Positions 3-63,861 of a stretch of 64,000 bases of DNA are shown piece after piece. Every line of letters begins with the position of its first letter. The stretch's first letter is position 1. Made by a program: the position numbers and the translations under genes. The notes below the pieces were generated by a model, which did no database searches, was not told where the DNA came from, and saw only the letters and a program-made list of their open reading frames with translations. Source of the stretch: Rickettsiales bacterium (GTDB lineage Bacteria > Pseudomonadota > Alphaproteobacteria > Rickettsiales > JABCZZ01); the NCBI GenBank assembly GCA_035765535.1, contig DASTXE010000006.1:124001-188000 (forward strand), read 5' to 3'.

Positions 3-2492
3 AAATACCACCCGCACGGCGACTCCGCGATTTACGACTCCCTGGTCCGTATGGCACAGCCCTTCTCCATGCGCTTGCCGCTGGTGGATGGCCAGGGTAA
101 CTTCGGCTCCATGGACGGCGACAACGCAGCGGCAATGCGTTACACGGAATCCCGTCTTGCCAAAGCCGCCCATGCCTTGCTGACCGATATCGATAAAGAC
201 ACAATCGATTTCCAGGATAACTATGACGGTTCGGAAAAAGAACCCACCGTTATTCCGGCGCAGTTCCCCAATATCCTCGTCAACGGCGCAGGCGGTATCG
301 CTGTGGGTATGGCAACGAATATTCCACCGCACAATTTGGGTGAAGTGGTCGATGCGTGCTGCCTCTATATCGACAATAACGATGTCACCATCGACGAAAT
401 GATGCAGGTCTGCCCCGGTCCGGACTTCCCCACCGGCGCTATCATCCTCGGCCGCACAGGCAGCCATAGCGCGATGCATACCGGCCGTGGCTCAGTCATT
501 ATGCGCGGCAAAGCCGAAATTGAAGATCTCAAGGGCGGCAAACAGGCCATCATTATCACCGAAATTCCGTATCAGGTGAACAAGGCGCGCATGGTTGAGC
601 GTATCGCCGAACTGGTGAAGGAAAAACGCATCGAAGGCATTTCCGATCTGCGCGACGAATCCGACAAGCAAGGCGTGCGCGTGGTCGTGGAAGTGAAAAA
701 AGAAGCGGTGGCCGAAGTCGTACTGAACCAGCTTTACAGCTACACCCCGCTGCAAACCTCGTTCGGCGTGAATATGCTGGCTATCGACCAGGGCCGCCCG
801 CGCCTCATGAACCTGAAACAGGTGATTGAAGCGTTTGTGAACTTCCGCGAAGAAGTCATCACGCGCCGCACTTTGTTCCTGCTCAACAAAGCCCGCGACC
901 GCGCCCATGTATTAATCGGCCTTGCAATTGCCGTTGCCAATATCGACGAAGTAATCCGGGTTATCCGCGCCGCAGCCGATCCGGTTATTGCAAAGAACGA
1001 ACTGATGGCCCGCAGCTGGGAAGCGCACGATGTCGGCGCGCTGCTGGCACTTGTGGACGATTCCGGCAACAGGATCGAAGACGGCAAGATCAGATTTACC
1101 GAAACGCAGGCAAAAGCCATTCTGGAACTGCGTCTGCAGCGCCTGACCGGTCTGGAACGCAGCAAAATCGACGAAGAACTGCAGCAGCTCGCCGGTGAAA
1201 TCAGCGAATGCCTGTCTATTCTCGGCTCGCGTGAAAAACTGTTGGGCATCCTGAAAGACGAATTACTGAAAGCGCGTGAAGAATTCGCCACCCCGCGCCG
1301 TACCGTATTTGAGGAATCCGATTCCGATATCGACATCGAATCGCTCATTCAGAAAGAAGATATGGTCGTTACCGTCACCCTCGGCGGTTATATCAAGCGC
1401 GTACCGCTTTCCGCCTACCGCGCACAGCGTCGCGGTGGCAAAGGCAAGCAGGCAATGGCCGTTCGCGATGAGGATATCACGACCGAAGTCTTCGCCACCA
1501 ACACCCACACCCCTGTATTGTTCTTCTCGAACTACGGTAAGGTGTACAAACTCAAAGTTTACCGCCTGCCACTGGGCACAGCACAGGCGCGCGGCAAAGC
1601 GCTGGTCAATATCTTCCCGCTGGCCGAAGGCGAAACAATTACGAACTTCATGCCGCTGCCGGAAGACGAAACCCAGTGGGATAACATGCATATCATGTTT
1701 GCCACCGCATCGGGCAACGTGCGCCGTAACGATCTTTCGGACTTCCATGACATTCGCGCCAATGGCAAAATCGCTATGAAGCTCGATGAAGGCGACAAGC
1801 TTATCGGTGTCATGACCTGCAAGGAAACCGACCAGATCCTACTGGCGGCAAGATCCGGTAAGTGTGTGCGCTTCCCGGTCGATGCCGTCCGCGTCTTCAA
1901 GAGCCGCACATCCGACGGTGTGCGCGGCATGAAACTGGCCGAGGGTGACGAGCTTATCTCCATGTCGGTGCTAGGAGGCATCGAATCCACGACCGAAGAG
2001 CGTGTGGCATATCTGAAAATGGCTGCCCAGCGCCGCCGCGCCGGGGATGAAGATACTGAAGTCAGCGCACCGGATGAAGAAGAAGCTGGCGTTCAGGCGA
2101 TCACATTGACGGAAGAACGCTACGCCGAACTCGCAGCCGCGGAGCAGTTCCTGCTGACGATCACGGAAAACGGCTACGGCAAACGCAGTTCCGCTTATGA
2201 ATACCGCGTCACGAACCGTGGCGGTTCCGGCATCGTCGGCATCGTGACCTCGGCACGTAATGGCGGTGTGATTGCAAGCTTCCCGATTGAGGATGACGAT
2301 CAGATCATGCTCATGACGAACAAGGCAAAGCTCATCCGCACGCCGGTGAAGGACATTCGCATTGCTGGCCGCAACACGCAGGGCGTTACGATTCTGAAGA
2401 CCGCCGAAGGTGAAAAAGTCGTCTCCGCCACTTCCGTCAAGGAAGACGAGTCGGCAGCCGGCGAGCAGGACGAAGAAGCTACGGAAGAATAA
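3..2492 (+). CDS. gyrA: DNA gyrase subunit A, 5'-truncated by window edge
   Basis: This is the breakage-reunion subunit of the type II topoisomerase that introduces negative supercoils. The frame is open from base 3, so the gene starts left of the window; the first residues match about E. coli residue 76. The quinolone-determining segment reads [12 protein letters not shown], with Ser at the position-83 equivalent (bases 24-26) and Asp at the position-87 equivalent (36-38), the usual susceptible residues. The catalytic tyrosine lies in AAAMRYTE. A GyrA box (QRRGGKG) opens the C-terminal beta-pinwheel domain, which separates it from ParC. An acidic stretch rich in Glu and Asp interrupts the pinwheel region and another ends the protein. 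An SDR gene follows after 10 bases, probably co-transcribed. Confidence 0.98.
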
Positions 2493-11282: not shown

Positions 11283-13031
11283 ATGGCTCACAATGTAGCT
11301 GCCTACGCAGTAAACGACCAGACCACCGAATTCGCCACTGGTGAAAACTTCGCTGAACTGTTCGAATCATACGTTAAATCCGGCGAAAAGTCCGAAGGCA
11401 GCGTTATCAAAGGTATTATCGTCGCTATCGAAAACAACGACATCGTCGTAGTCGATGTCGGCCTGAAATCCGAAGGCCGCGTTTCCATTAAGGAATTCAC
11501 GCAGCATGGCAAAATTCCGGAACTCCGTGTCGGCGACGAAGTCGAAGTTTACCTGGAAAAACTCGAAAACAAGCATGGCGAAGCCGTTATCAGCCGCGAA
11601 AAAGCGCTGCGCGAAGAATCCTGGGCACGCCTCGAACGCGCCTGCGCTAACGCAGAACGCGTTGACGGCGTCATTTTCGGCCGCGTCAAAGGCGGCTTCA
11701 CAGTGGATATCGAAGGCGCTGTTGCCTTCCTGCCGGGCAGCCAGGTGGACATCCGTCCGATCCGCGACGTCACCCCGCTCATGGGCATCACCCAGCCGTT
11801 CATTATCCTCAAGATGGACCGCAAGCGTGGCAATATCGTGGTTTCCCGCCGTGCTATCCTCGAAGAATCCCGCGTCGAAGCACGCAACGAACTGCTCGGC
11901 AAGATCTCCGAAGGCCAGCAGCTGGAAGGCGTGGTCAAGAACATCACCGATTACGGTGCGTTCATCGACATGGGCGGCATCGACGGCCTGCTCCACGTTA
12001 CCGATATTTCCTGGAAGCGTATCAATCACCCGTCCGAAGTACTGCATGTCGGTCAGACCGTAAAAGTTATGGTCACCAAGTTCGACCAGGACAGCAAGCG
12101 TATTTCGCTGGGCATGAAGCAGCTCGAACAGAATCCGTGGGAAAACATCGCCGGCAAGTTCCATATCGGCCAGCGCTTCACGGGTACCGTAACCAACATC
12201 ACGGACTACGGTGCGTTCGTTGAACTGGAAAAAGGCATCGAAGGCCTCGTTCACGTGTCCGAAATGAGCTGGGTAAAGAAAAACACCCACCCGAGCAAGA
12301 TCATCTCCAGCAGCCAGCAGGTTGAAGTGGTGATCCTCGACATCGACAACGTGAAGCACCGCATCAGCCTCGGCATGAAGCAGTGCGTCGACAATCCATG
12401 GGCAACGTTCGCTGAAAAGCACAATGTTGGCGACACGATTGAAGGCACCGTACGTAACATCACCGATTTCGGCCTGTTTGTAGGTCTGGACGGTGATATC
12501 GACGGCCTTGTTCACCATTCCGACATCAGCTGGACCGAACCGGGTGAAACCGCTGTGAAGAACTACAAGAAGGGCGAAACGGTCCAGGCCAGGATCCTCG
12601 CTATCGACGTAGAAAAAGAGCGCATCAGCCTCGGTATCAAGCAGCTCTCCGGCAATGAGTCCGGCGGCGCAATCGACAGTCTGCAGAAAGGCAGTGTCGT
12701 TACCTGCGTGGTCACCGGCATCCAGGAAAGTGGCATCGATGTGAAGATCAACGATACCATCACCGCCTTCATCAAGAAGTCGGACCTGTCCCGTGACCGT
12801 CAGGAACAGCGCCCTGACCGCTTCGCAGTCGGCGACCGCGTTGATGCGAAAGTAACCAACGTGGACAAGAACGCGCACAAAGTCACCGTTTCCATCAAAG
12901 CACTGGAAGCAGATGAACAGAAGCGTGCGATCGAGGAATACGGCTCCACCGACTCCGGCGCCAGCCTCGGCGACATTCTTGGCGCGGCATTGAACGATGC
13001 CAACGACAAGAAGGCTAAAAAGTCTAAGTAA
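11283..13031 (+). CDS. rpsA: 30S ribosomal protein S1
   Basis: S1 binds mRNA on the 30S subunit and helps initiate translation of structured messages. The protein has 582 residues with six S1/OB-fold repeats; the best preserved are those with VVKNITDYGAFIDMG, TVTNITDYGAFVELE and TVRNITDFGLFVGLD, each followed by a GLVH or GLLH strand. The C-terminus ends in a lysine-rich tail. A GGAAAAGAG ribosome binding site precedes the ATG. The usual upstream partner cmk is absent from this position; a divergent xthA is there instead. A strong hairpin follows the stop. Confidence 0.97.
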   Translation: MAHNVAAYAVNDQTTEFATGENFAELFESYVKSGEKSEGSVIKGIIVAIENNDIVVVDVGLKSEGRVSIKEFTQHGKIPELRVGDEVEVYLEKLENKHGEAVISREKALREESWARLERACANAERVDGVIFGRVKGGFTVDIEGAVAFLPGSQVDIRPIRDVTPLMGITQPFIILKMDRKRGNIVVSRRAILEESRVEARNELLGKISEGQQLEGVVKNITDYGAFIDMGGIDGLLHVTDISWKRINHPSEVLHVGQTVKVMVTKFDQDSKRISLGMKQLEQNPWENIAGKFHIGQRFTGTVTNITDYGAFVELEKGIEGLVHVSEMSWVKKNTHPSKIISSSQQVEVVILDIDNVKHRISLGMKQCVDNPWATFAEKHNVGDTIEGTVRNITDFGLFVGLDGDIDGLVHHSDISWTEPGETAVKNYKKGETVQARILAIDVEKERISLGIKQLSGNESGGAIDSLQKGSVVTCVVTGIQESGIDVKINDTITAFIKKSDLSRDRQEQRPDRFAVGDRVDAKVTNVDKNAHKVTVSIKALEADEQKRAIEEYGSTDSGASLGDILGAALNDANDKKAKKSK

Positions 13032-58099: not shown

Positions 58100-58170
58100 C
58101 TTGTCATGCCAGCGAAAGCTGGCATCCAGCATAACCAAATCTGGATTCCTGCTTCCGCAGGAATGACAAG
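58100..58170. repeat. Double-hairpin palindromic repeat between asd and queH
   Basis: Two inverted 30-base halves (58100-58129 and 58141-58170). Each half is itself a 7-bp hairpin: TGCCAGC-GAAA-GCTGGCA and TTCCTGC-TTCC-GCAGGAA. Outer CTTGTCA and TGACAAG and inner ATCCAG and CTGGAT also pair. Similar TCAT-to-ATGA elements are dispersed in many proteobacterial genomes. Read in one frame it gives the artefactual AGIQ...PASAGMT peptide. Confidence 0.8.
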
Positions 58171-58195
58171 AACTGACAAGAGAGCAAAAGCAGCT

Positions 58196-58855
58196 ATGCA
58201 GGAAATCATCAAACACATCGATCTGACTCCGCCAGATGGGGAAAAGCGTGTGCTGATGCATAGCTGCTGCGCGCCTTGCGCGGGTGAATTGATGGAGCAG
58301 ATGCTGGCCAACGGCATCGACCTGACGATTTTCTTTTATAATCCGAATATCCATCCCAAAAAAGAATACGAAATCCGCAAGGAAGAGAATATCCGCTTCG
58401 CCGAGAAAATGGGTATTCCGTTCGTTGATGCGGATTATGACGTACAGAACTGGTTTGCCCGCGCCAAAGGCATGGAACGCGAACCGGAACGCGGCGTACG
58501 CTGCACGATGTGCTTCGATATGCGTTTCGAGCGCACAGCATTATATGCACATGAAAACAACTTTAAGATTATTACCAGTTCACTCGGCATTTCACGCTGG
58601 AAGAACATGGACCAGATCAATGATTGCGGCCTGCGCGCTGCTGAACATTATCCTGGCGTGACTTACTGGACGTATAACTGGCGCAAATCCGGCGGCTCCG
58701 CTCGTATGTATGAAATCGCCAAGCGCGAAGAATTCTACGCCCAGCAATATTGCGGCTGCATTTACTCCCTGCGCGATTCCAATGAATGGCGTGAATCGCA
58801 AGGCCGTGAAAAGATTGAGATCGGTGAAACCTGGTATGCCGAAAAGCTGCAGTAG
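58196..58855 (+). CDS. queH: Epoxyqueuosine reductase QueH
   Basis: The alternative enzyme to QueG for the last step of queuosine tRNA modification, reducing epoxyqueuosine. The 219-residue protein has [12 protein letters not shown] near the N-terminus, [31 protein letters not shown] and [15 protein letters not shown], which include the iron-sulfur and metal-site cysteines. I chose MQEIIKHID; the frame continues 30 codons upstream, but only through the palindromic repeat. Confidence 0.94.
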
Positions 58856-62219: not shown

Positions 62220-62362
62220 AAGGTTCCAGTTAAATTCCGGGTAAACTCCCGTATTCGGCGAACCGCCATTATACCAACTGGGAGCCTTTGGCGCAATCGG
62301 CAGCCTTCTTCCTGTCACAAAACCTTAACGTATTTGCTTTAATACACTTTACTATTTTCGGC

Positions 62363-62368
62363 TATAAT
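62363..62368 (+). promoter_or_regulatory. TATAAT box upstream of the GC-rich gene
   Basis: A consensus -10 box in an AT-rich stretch. A convincing -35 at normal distance is not present. Confidence 0.35.
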
Positions 62369-62382
62369 AGACTGGTCCTATT

Positions 62383-62409
62383 GTTCAAACCTCAGGAGGT
62401 TTATCGAAC
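62383..62409 (+). promoter_or_regulatory. Hairpin containing an AGGAGG sequence
   Basis: AAACCT-CAGG-AGGTTT forms a 6-bp stem, extended by GTTC and GAAC with a three-base bulge. The stem buries a perfect ribosome binding sequence, but no start codon lies at the right distance. It may be an RNA switch remnant or a border of transferred DNA. Confidence 0.4.
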
Positions 62410-62467
62410 GATTTCAGAGTATCCCTTTACTCTCTATCCACCGCACCTTCACAGGGAGGATTTTCAG

Positions 62468-63190
62468 GTGCGTACTAGAAGAAACAGACCACCGTGGCAG
62501 TGGGCGATCCTGGGAGCGGTGACATTCCTGCTTCCCATGCTTCTCGCCATCCGCCTCGGCGCGTTCTCGTGGCTCCAGACGAGTCACACGTCGTCCGACG
62601 CCACCCCTAGGGTGAGCGCCACCGTCGCGGTAACTCCGTCCCCGGCCACAGCCTCGGCATCCGCCTCGGCTTCGGCGTCGGCATCGACCTCAGAGTCGGC
62701 CAGCGCTTCGTCCACATCAGGTACACCGACTCCGTCGGAACCCGCAGGCCCCAAGTCCTGCGACAACGACAAGTTCGATATCAACAACCTGCCACGCGAC
62801 GGGAACGTGACGAAGCAGTTCGACATGTACGGGTGCAAGGTCATCGCCCCACCGATCCCATGGCAACACGCGGCATGGCTGAACGGAACGGACATCGTGG
62901 TGCAGATCACGACGCACGATCCGACCAGCAACGCCTATTTGCCGCCGGGCCACGTGTTCGTCGAGATCGAGAACATCGCCGGTGCTTCCCGAGCGAAGGG
63001 TGTCAATGACTCAGATCCGGCACCTACCGACACATTCGTCCTCAGCATCTACGGGGACAAGGCTACGTGCCGGTTCACACTCGAAGGCGGCCAGAGCATG
63101 ACCGCAGTACCACTGGGGTCAGGATGGGACGTCTCCTTCGACGGACTGTCACCGAACAACAGGGCCGCAACCCTGATGTTCAACTGCTGA
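62468..63190 (+). CDS. GC-rich, foreign-looking membrane-anchored Ser/Ala-rich protein
   Basis: Unrecognised 240-residue protein. I chose the GTG at 62468, seven bases after AGGGAGGA; an upstream ATG in the same frame lacks a ribosome binding site. N-terminal basic residues (RTRRNRPP) and a membrane helix (WAILGAVTFLLPMLLAIRLG) are followed by a low-complexity Ser/Ala/Thr/Pro spacer and a globular domain of about 145 residues with four Cys. Codons favour G or C at the third position far more than the neighbours do (ACG, GTC, CTC, TCC, CGG), like actinobacterial genes. It is flanked by its own promoter-like and terminator-like elements, so recent transfer (or an assembly join) is likely. Confidence 0.8.
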   Translation: MRTRRNRPPWQWAILGAVTFLLPMLLAIRLGAFSWLQTSHTSSDATPRVSATVAVTPSPATASASASASASASTSESASASSTSGTPTPSEPAGPKSCDNDKFDINNLPRDGNVTKQFDMYGCKVIAPPIPWQHAAWLNGTDIVVQITTHDPTSNAYLPPGHVFVEIENIAGASRAKGVNDSDPAPTDTFVLSIYGDKATCRFTLEGGQSMTAVPLGSGWDVSFDGLSPNNRAATLMFNC

Positions 63191-63195
63191 ACCAC

Positions 63196-63241
63196 GCCTG
63201 CGGGGGATACAACGGTGCGCACACGCACCGCCCCCGCAGGC
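63196..63241. terminator. GC-rich two-part terminator hairpin
   Basis: GCCTGCGGGGG (63196-63206) pairs perfectly with 63231-63241, and inside it CGGTGCG-CACA-CGCACCG (63213-63230) forms a second stem. There is no T-run, as is usual in GC-rich bacteria. It ends six bases before the convergent DUF4337 stop. Confidence 0.75.
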
Positions 63242-63246
63242 ACGGC

Positions 63247-63861
63247 TCATCCCGCCAGATAGACCGAAGCAAATACGTAAGCTGTTATCACACAGGCACC
63301 TACTCCCGTCGCAACGCCCGCATAAAACACACTGCGCCGCTTCACAAGTGCCGCCACCGAAGCAAGCGCAATGCCGATCTGCGCCAACATACCTGCATAG
63401 CCGAGCAGGTCTTTCTGCTTGAGCTTCTTGAGCCCCATATCCAGATGCGCCTGCCGTTCCTGTGTCTTAGCGGTAGCTTCCTCTTTGTTGCCCGGCTGCC
63501 TCCCACGAAGATCCTTGTCCATCTTCGTAAGATCTTCCCGGTCACCAGGGCTGATTCCGCTGGAAGGAATCAGCTGCATTTCGACAATACGCGCCTTAAT
63601 GCTGTTAGCCTGATACTCCGCCCATGCATCCGAGGCCTGGGTCTGCGATAAGATCGCCTGGTTGCTTTCGTAAATCGCTTCGTTCGTAAGCATCGTGGAA
63701 CGGACCGTTAAAAAACCCGTGAGCGCCGCCAGCACCCCGGTGAGCACTGCCACCTGCCCTGCCCATTCCGGGCCGTTTTGCTCTGCCGCCGGAGCACCGC
63801 TTGCGGCCTGTGCCGCAACGTCTCCCAGTGTTTTCACTGTGGAAATGATTTTTTCTTTCAT
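63247..63861 (-). CDS. DUF4337-family membrane protein
   Basis: A 204-residue protein of the DUF4337 type. It has a membrane segment near residue 40 (AVLTGVLAALTGFLTVRST), the motif IYESNQAILSQTQASDAWAEYQANSIKAR, a charged helical middle, and two C-terminal membrane segments (MLAQIGIALASVAALV and FYAGVATGVGACVITAYVF). The function of the family is unknown. GAGG lies ten bases before the ATG, inside the last codons of the preceding gene. Confidence 0.85.
   Translation of the reverse strand: MKEKIISTVKTLGDVAAQAASGAPAAEQNGPEWAGQVAVLTGVLAALTGFLTVRSTMLTNEAIYESNQAILSQTQASDAWAEYQANSIKARIVEMQLIPSSGISPGDREDLTKMDKDLRGRQPGNKEEATAKTQERQAHLDMGLKKLKQKDLLGYAGMLAQIGIALASVAALVKRRSVFYAGVATGVGACVITAYVFASVYLAG

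What the first reader, a model, noticed from the sequence alone, without database searches (positions are those of the whole stretch)
62363..63241. Self-contained foreign gene cassette with actinobacterial-like composition
The gene at 62468-63190 has strong G/C third positions, a GTG start and a Ser/Ala/Thr spacer, unlike all neighbours. It has its own -10-like box and a GC-rich double-stem terminator without a T-run. It sits between an alphaproteobacterial pqiA promoter region and a DUF4337 gene. The four-Cys globular domain (about 145 residues) is unknown to me and may be a new surface protein domain.
Basis: partly seen in the sequence, partly recalled or inferred. Interest (0 to 1): 0.6.

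Follow-up and report, generated by a model that had tools for sequence, protein, structure and literature searches.

The report
Foreign orphan gene behind shared promoter
A gene of unknown family with foreign-looking DNA sits in a bacterial genome behind a promoter design that the same genome also places in front of other unrelated orphan genes, so it looks like one member of a scattered, jointly controlled set and not an assembly error.

Summary
The gene at 62468-63190 plus its hairpin is the most actinobacterial-like segment of the window (41-45 nats; next best 10-13), with third-position GC 0.76. No homologue was found in family libraries, PDB, phages, plasmids, viral contigs, a genome-contig peptide scan, 384 other Alphaproteobacteria or, beyond chance, about 1,200 (overlapping) Actinomycetota genomes.

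It is not a lone cassette. A composition scan of 49% of this genome, plus one pattern search of all of it, gives six loci (nine genes) of one design: host-like promoter, AT-richer leader, GC-rich orphan ORF, stable hairpin. Five of the nine genes share GTCAYAAAAMC-N38-TANNNT, which has seven exact copies genome-wide. Small orphan genes behind the same motif and structured leaders occur in a congeneric genome. An assembly chimera is therefore unlikely.

Best reading: a horizontally acquired, membrane-anchored exported protein expressed within a regulon resembling OmpR/PhoB-controlled effector repertoires. Function is unknown; the donor is inferred from composition only.

The parts
62314..62335 (+). 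OmpR/PhoB-type direct-repeat box (GTCACAAAACC then TTAACGTATTT, period 11)
   Evidence: First half-site matches GTCAYAAAAMC; 8 such sites in 1.27 Mb of this genome, 4 of them in promoters of GC-rich units
62363..62368 (+). -10 element TATAAT, starting 49 nt after the first base of the box
   Evidence: Same spacing in units E, B1, B2 and G; plain promoter scan 10 of 12
62369..62467 (+). 99-nt 5' leader, GC 0.45, with hairpins and an AAACCTCAGGAGGTTT palindrome
   Evidence: Composition and fold; its own z is only -1.1
62454..62459 (+). Shine-Dalgarno sequence GGGAGG
   Evidence: Read directly from the sequence
62468..63190 (+). Foreign orphan ORF, 240 aa, GTG start
   Evidence: composition
62495..62563 (+). 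N-terminal hydrophobic helix (residues 10-32) after a basic N-terminus: signal anchor, inferred N-in/C-out
   Evidence: Helix at residues 10-32 in the model, block pLDDT about 79; topology inferred
62576..62752 (+). Low-complexity Ser/Ala/Thr/Pro linker (about residues 37-95)
   Evidence: Translation
62753..63187 (+). C-terminal four-Cys, predicted beta-rich domain (residues 96-240)
   Evidence: Eight strands in a low-confidence model (mean pLDDT 44.8); no homologue
63196..63241 (+). GC-rich hairpin terminator without T-run, between the convergent stop codons of this gene and DUF4337
   Evidence: outer arms 63188-63206 / 63231-63249

Best explanation
The gene is a horizontally acquired orphan. 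Its reading frame and terminator come from a GC-rich, actinobacterial-type source, but it is expressed from a promoter and leader of host-like composition. A box of the kind bound by OmpR/PhoB-family response regulators lies 49 nt upstream of the -10, as in other units of the same genome. Transcription gives a short mRNA with a leader, translated from GTG behind GGGAGG, and stops in the hairpin shared with the convergent DUF4337 gene. The protein is held in the inner membrane by its N-terminal helix and exposes a disulfide-capable beta domain outside the cytoplasm through a flexible linker. It belongs to a dispersed, jointly regulated repertoire of fast-turnover orphan proteins, most likely acting on other cells or on the envelope, comparable to response-regulator-controlled effector sets. 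Shown here: foreign composition, orphan status, shared promoter motif and spacing, several units. Inferred: regulator identity, topology, donor, function.
For: Top foreign-like segment of the window. Of 1.27 Mb scanned, six segments exceed 20 nats, the next is 14.4; five of the six have the unit design, one is unclear. Motif GTCAYAAAAMC-N38-TANNNT: 4 exact hits in that half, all in units; 38 is the only spacing from 20 to 59 with more than one hit. Motif and spacing were derived from these leaders, so the independent test is the unseen half: 3 new exact hits, 1 of 3 a further GC-rich unit (83 aa, GC3 0.76), 2 of 3 in front of genes of native composition. Hairpins at or below -39 kcal/mol follow 6 of 8 unit genes against 3 of 281 gene ends on contig C6, one of those three being the far side of a unit terminator. 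Leaders of 13 chosen units are more structured than 45 control upstream regions (mean z -2.67 against -0.56, p 9e-6). Codon likelihood over nine unit genes: best actinobacterium -1543, best alphaproteobacterium -1616, own -1891. None of 15 unit genes (nine G000, six G002) and none of 12 other motif-linked genes reaches a Pfam cut-off.
Against: The two other exact motif hits drive native-composition genes, so the motif is not specific to foreign genes. Units A and D have only degenerate boxes at other spacings; A2 and B3 have none of their own. The target leader by itself is not unusually structured (z -1.1). Enrichment of the motif over its reversed control holds in G000 (13 against 5) and G002 (17 against 5) but not in G001 (6 against 6) or G003 (5 against 4). 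No regulator, secretion system or expression was tested. No homologue in the sampled Actinomycetota, so the donor is unproven. Two of nine unit genes, B3 and E, are hardly distinguishable from the host by codon use.
Confidence: 0.55

Rival explanations
1. Isolated horizontal transfer of one actinobacterial gene with its own terminator, unrelated to the other GC-rich segments; the promoter resemblance is coincidental or an old pqiA promoter reused.
For: Composition. The box lies in the pqiA upstream region. No donor gene found, as often for accessory genes.
Against: The same box with the same 49-nt spacing stands before other GC-rich orphan units, with one further unit found in the unseen half.
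Confidence: 0.2
2. Native, fast-evolving lineage genes under one regulon whose GC-rich codon use is due to unusual selection, not transfer.
For: The promoters are host-like; small motif-linked genes in the congener are orphans without strong GC bias (GC3 0.37-0.63 in the five measured).
Against: GC3 up to 0.98 in a genome of GC3 about 0.61, with actinobacterial codon tables fitting best; foreign composition starts near the start codon and ends at the hairpin.
Confidence: 0.12
3. Genes of an undescribed phage, satellite or other mobile element that carries its own promoters (moron-like units).
For: Single genes with own promoter and terminator, orphan status, dispersed sites; one unit's box starts 28 nt after a tRNA-Leu gene.
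Against: No match of the target, A1, A2, B2 or D in phage records or viral contigs, nor of the target, A1, A2 or B1 in plasmids; stricter promoter pattern absent from viral contigs; no shared flanking repeats seen.
Confidence: 0.1
4. Assembly chimera with DNA of a co-occurring actinobacterium.
For: The genome may be a metagenome assembly (inferred; its origin is not told); reads could not be checked.
Against: A complete gene with start, stop, Shine-Dalgarno and terminator; the same promoter design at other loci and in a second genome; contig of 806 kb.
Confidence: 0.03

Closest known systems
Response-regulator-controlled effector repertoires of Legionella (PmrA/CpxR)
   Same: Many poorly conserved genes of atypical G+C under response-regulator boxes (PMC2701608, passages read: PmrA and CpxR regulate numerous effectors; effectors have atypical G+C)
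   Different: There the atypical G+C is low and attributed to protozoa, and effectors cluster; here it is high and actinobacterial-like, units are dispersed, with structured leaders and T-less hairpins. No secretion system or translocation tested here
Phage morons / single-gene accessory units (recalled)
   Same: One gene with its own promoter and terminator
   Different: Here in a bacterial chromosome, promoter of host-like composition, no phage homologue
Pho box / PhoB promoters (recalled)
   Same: Direct repeats of GTCAYA-like half-sites with period 11
   Different: The -10 starts 49 nt after the first base of the first half-site instead of about 26 as I recall for E. coli phoA; no pst or pho gene examined
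DUF4352 (PF11611) anchored beta-domain proteins of Actinomycetes
   Same: General shape, by eye
   Different: No sequence support: profile comparison no better than shuffles

Membership tests
Legionella-like response-regulator effector regulon | OmpR-family direct-repeat box upstream | tested here: met
   Period-11 repeat and fixed spacing in the target and four other GC-rich unit genes; regulator itself unidentified
Legionella-like response-regulator effector regulon | Atypical base composition and lack of housekeeping homologues | tested here: met
Legionella-like response-regulator effector regulon | Secretion signal and translocation into another cell | not testable with these tools
   Needs a translocation assay; a secretion system was not searched for
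Phage moron | Located in or derived from a phage genome | tested here: not met
   No phage or viral match; residence in a prophage was not tested beyond the neighbouring genes
Integron gene cassette | attC site and integron integrase | not tested
   The 3' hairpin showed no attC-like boxes by eye; no model run
DUF4352 | Significant profile match | tested here: not met
   hhalign probability 0.5%, several of 60 shuffles score higher; absent from the Pfam list
Actinomycetota gene family | Homologues in Actinomycetota | tested here: not met
   At E 0.01: 2 of 394, 3 of 396 and 6 of 396 genomes (overlapping samples), about the chance number; 10 of the 11 distinct matched loci read and judged unrelated

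The most novel reading that the evidence does not exclude
The promoter plus structured leader is a standard expression slot that this genus duplicates and reuses to capture foreign ORF-plus-terminator pieces from distant bacteria, a chromosomal gene-capture system without a known recombinase. A bolder version: the ORFs keep donor codon use and unusually stable mRNA ends because they are expressed in another organism's cytoplasm.
Probability: 0.12. Interest if true: 0.85.

Novelty: new variant of a known kind. Interest (0 to 1): 0.55.

Why it matters
Accessory repertoires under one regulator are usually explained one gene at a time. Here unrelated orphan ORFs of GC-rich, actinobacterial-type composition repeatedly stand behind one promoter design with a fixed operator-to-promoter distance, a leader and a strong 3' hairpin. 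If it holds, it gives a sequence rule that finds candidate effectors or surface proteins in an uncharacterised alphaproteobacterial lineage, and it makes a concrete question testable: how do foreign genes come under an existing regulon?

Tried and rejected
Homology: Pfam, NCBIfam, PHROGs, PADLOC, PDB, plasmids, phages, viral contigs, genome contigs, own order, own class, Actinomycetota: nothing beyond weak linker matches or chance. Weak actinobacterial hits were read (10 of the 11 distinct loci, the near-duplicate L143 not separately): non-coding or unrelated frames, a methyltransferase-like protein and a repeat protein, none with helix-linker-four-Cys architecture. A blastn of the unit against plasmids matched only the repetitive linker. 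DUF4352 rejected (17 of the 23 matched loci used). Both structure models are poor (mean pLDDT 49 and 45); the PDB fold search of the first gave nothing meaningful and none was run on the second. No empty site: in G002 and G003 pqiA and DUF4337 lie on different contigs. Flanking repeats: the 12-bp inverted repeat ACGTATTTGCTT around the target is at the limit of chance and not shared by other units. Rfam: only sub-threshold microRNA-like matches on the minus strand of the terminator in the target region, and an SRP RNA elsewhere in L265. Segment C3:37104-38075 (31 nats, 418-aa multi-helix ORF without a Pfam match over cut-off or any NCBIfam hit) was left out of the units because its hairpin is weaker and no box was found by eye. 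Dropped before counts: Propionibacteriaceae locus L181 was used but not; the six G002 leaders were picked from 17 G002 hits for having a small ORF and a good -10. Paper searches showed no description of such units in their listings; only these six searches support that statement.

Full report
What was given.

The observation. The ORF 62468-63190 encodes 240 residues: a basic N-terminus, a hydrophobic helix (model helix 10-32), a Ser/Ala/Thr/Pro linker, and about 145 residues with four Cys. GC at third positions is 0.76; of 74 ORFs of at least 100 codons in 88 kb (one of them the longer reading of this same ORF) the maximum is 0.71. In the two-fold codon families 65 of 73 codons end in G or C against 38 expected (z 6.7); one native gene comes near, a 582-aa ORF at 11283-13031 that I recognise by eye as ribosomal protein S1 (z 5.6). 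Total codon likelihood under the host table is low but matched by 9 of 72 native genes. A Markov segmentation trained on host DNA against 29 actinobacterial loci picks 62487-63256 (orders 2 and 4) or 62543-63256 (order 3) as the best segment of the window with 41-45 nats; the runner-up has 10-13. The hairpin 63196-63241 folds at -41.9 kcal/mol, z -5.7. The window is part of an 806,586-base contig of a genome of 2,596,210 bases in 6 contigs, 100% complete, 0% contaminated.

Homologues. None. Family libraries give only weak matches to the helix and low-complexity part. tblastn against plasmids and phages at E 1 gives none. Peptide-pattern scans of genome contigs and viral contigs give none. Of 55 genomes of the order 7 have a match at E 1, the best apart from the gene itself at 0.018. 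Of 385 genomes of the class only the own genome matches at E 0.01. In Actinomycetota 2 of 394, 3 of 396 and 6 of 396 genomes match at E 0.01 (the samples overlap), about what chance gives; the best E is 6.8e-4 in 396 genomes, and the matched proteins read do not share the architecture. In 24 further actinobacterial genomes 1 matches at E 0.1. The protein is an orphan in everything searched.

Not alone. To get a background I scanned a larger part of the genome: contig C6 whole and parts of C1-C5, 1,266,586 bases. Six segments exceed 20 nats and the next has 14.4: C6:240957-242968 (160), C4:17464-19164 (88), C6:697242-697919 (52), the target (46), C3:37104-38075 (31) and C1:7761-8007 (24). All but the C3 segment have one design: an AT-richer upstream region with a -10, a leader of 99-240 nt, one or more GC-rich ORFs with Shine-Dalgarno-like sequence, and a very stable hairpin, mostly without T-run. 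The genes are: A1 (303 aa, GC3 0.98, a von Willebrand-like DASGSM motif recognised by eye) and A2 (287 aa, sub-threshold PP2C match), B1 (195 aa), B2 (238 aa), B3 (123 aa), D (206 aa), E (65 aa). None reaches a Pfam cut-off. Hairpin energies at or below -39 kcal/mol follow 6 of these 8 genes, the target included, against 3 of 281 gene ends on C6, one of which lies on the far side of the A2 terminator.

Shared promoter. The leaders of T, B1, B2 and E carry GTCAYAAAAMC followed at exactly 49 nt from its first base by TANNNT. The 11-base word occurs 8 times in the scanned half and 4 of the 8 are these. The word with its spacing occurs 4 times, all in units; no other spacing from 20 to 59 gives more than one hit. 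B1 and B2 are related promoters (86% over 58 bases) and count as one event. Because the rule was read off these leaders, the test is the unseen half: the whole-genome search finds 7 exact copies, 3 of them new. One of the three, C4:252374, precedes a further GC-rich orphan (83 aa, GC3 0.76, 3' fold -25 kcal/mol), called unit G. The two others precede genes of native composition with short leaders. So 5 of 7 copies stand before GC-rich unit genes. Units A and D have only degenerate boxes at other spacings.

Congener. In G002 (same genus, 53% complete) the pattern with up to one mismatch occurs 17 times against 5 for the reversed control; G000 13 against 5; G001 6 against 6; G003 5 against 4. 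In G002 six hits precede small orphan ORFs of 35-125 residues behind leaders of 70-155 nt, with 3' folds of -24 to -37 kcal/mol. One of them, 72 aa with a GTG start, has a sub-threshold match to the Skp1 dimerisation domain (18 bits, cut-off 22.3), not confirmed in PDB sequences. Ten motif-linked proteins from G000-G003 have no Pfam match at E 0.01. The G002 ORFs are not notably GC-rich, so the design is more general than the GC-rich composition.

Leader. Leaders of 13 chosen units (seven G000, six G002) have mean folding z -2.67 against -0.56 for 45 control upstream regions (p 9e-6). The target is the weakest at -1.1. Leader GC in G000 is 0.45-0.57; actinobacterial upstream regions average 0.67 with 0 of 32 at or below 0.50, host ones 0.43. 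Foreign composition therefore begins near the start codon.

Donor. Over nine unit genes the summed codon log-likelihood is -1543 for the best actinobacterial table, -1616 for the best of six alphaproteobacterial ones and -1891 for the host; Arcanobacterium (GC 0.56) does worse than the host, so much of the signal is GC content. For B3 and E the difference is small. The donor class remains an inference.

Mechanism. Period-11 direct repeats are typical of OmpR/PhoB-family response regulators (recalled). I take this family as the likely controller; the regulator was not identified. The nearest precedent is Legionella, whose PmrA and CpxR response regulators control many effectors of atypical G+C (PMC2701608, passages read). 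By analogy the target is probably an accessory protein acting at the envelope or on other cells; this step is inference. How different foreign ORFs came to stand behind one promoter design is open. Homologous recombination between repeated promoters is one possibility: unit B1 is flanked by copies of the 18-mer GTCACAAAACCGTCACAA.

Limits. No reads, no transcripts, no empty site, half a genome scanned for composition, unit selection partly by hand, host taxon unnamed. Six paper searches showed no description of such units in the listings.

Noticed in passing
G000:C6:240931-242848 (L194:8931-10848); window-relative +116931: Two further GC-rich orphan genes in tandem, one with a VWA-like DASGSM motif and GC3 0.98, one with a sub-threshold PP2C match, beside a protein kinase gene (C6:238890-240521, minus strand) of low GC3 0.42. 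It looks like a kinase/VWA/phosphatase triad of mixed origin.
   Followed up: partly
G000:C4:17232-19665 (L233): Three GC-rich membrane-protein genes in a row; the first two have related promoters and leaders, so the first unit is flanked by direct repeats of the promoter box.
   Followed up: partly
G000:C1:7428-8005 (L230): A 65-aa Gly/Ser-rich GC-rich unit whose box starts 28 nt after a tRNA-Leu(gag) gene.
   Followed up: partly
G000:C3:37104-38418 (L245): 418-aa multi-helix ORF of GC3 0.77 without a Pfam match over cut-off or any NCBIfam match; foreign-like segment of 31 nats, not clearly of the unit design.
   Followed up: no
L281:1593-2765 (G000) and L282:446-1471 (G002): Two long proteins in congeneric genomes behind GTCACAAAAATTTAACCTTTATG with a -10 at the closer, PhoB-like distance; no Pfam match; apparently related proteins by eye.
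   Followed up: no
L283:1877-2095 (G002:C21): 72-aa orphan behind the shared promoter with a sub-threshold Skp1 dimerisation-domain match, a possible eukaryote-like motif.
   Followed up: partly
window 62328-62339 and 63267-63278: Perfect 12-bp inverted repeat ACGTATTTGCTT bracketing the unit, its right arm inside DUF4337; at the limit of chance and not shared by other units.
   Followed up: yes
window 58106-58190: The longest ORF of the gene at 58106-58855 (looks like QueH, by eye) begins within a repeat-like stretch (AKAGIQ...IPASAGMT), so its listed start may be wrong.
   Followed up: no
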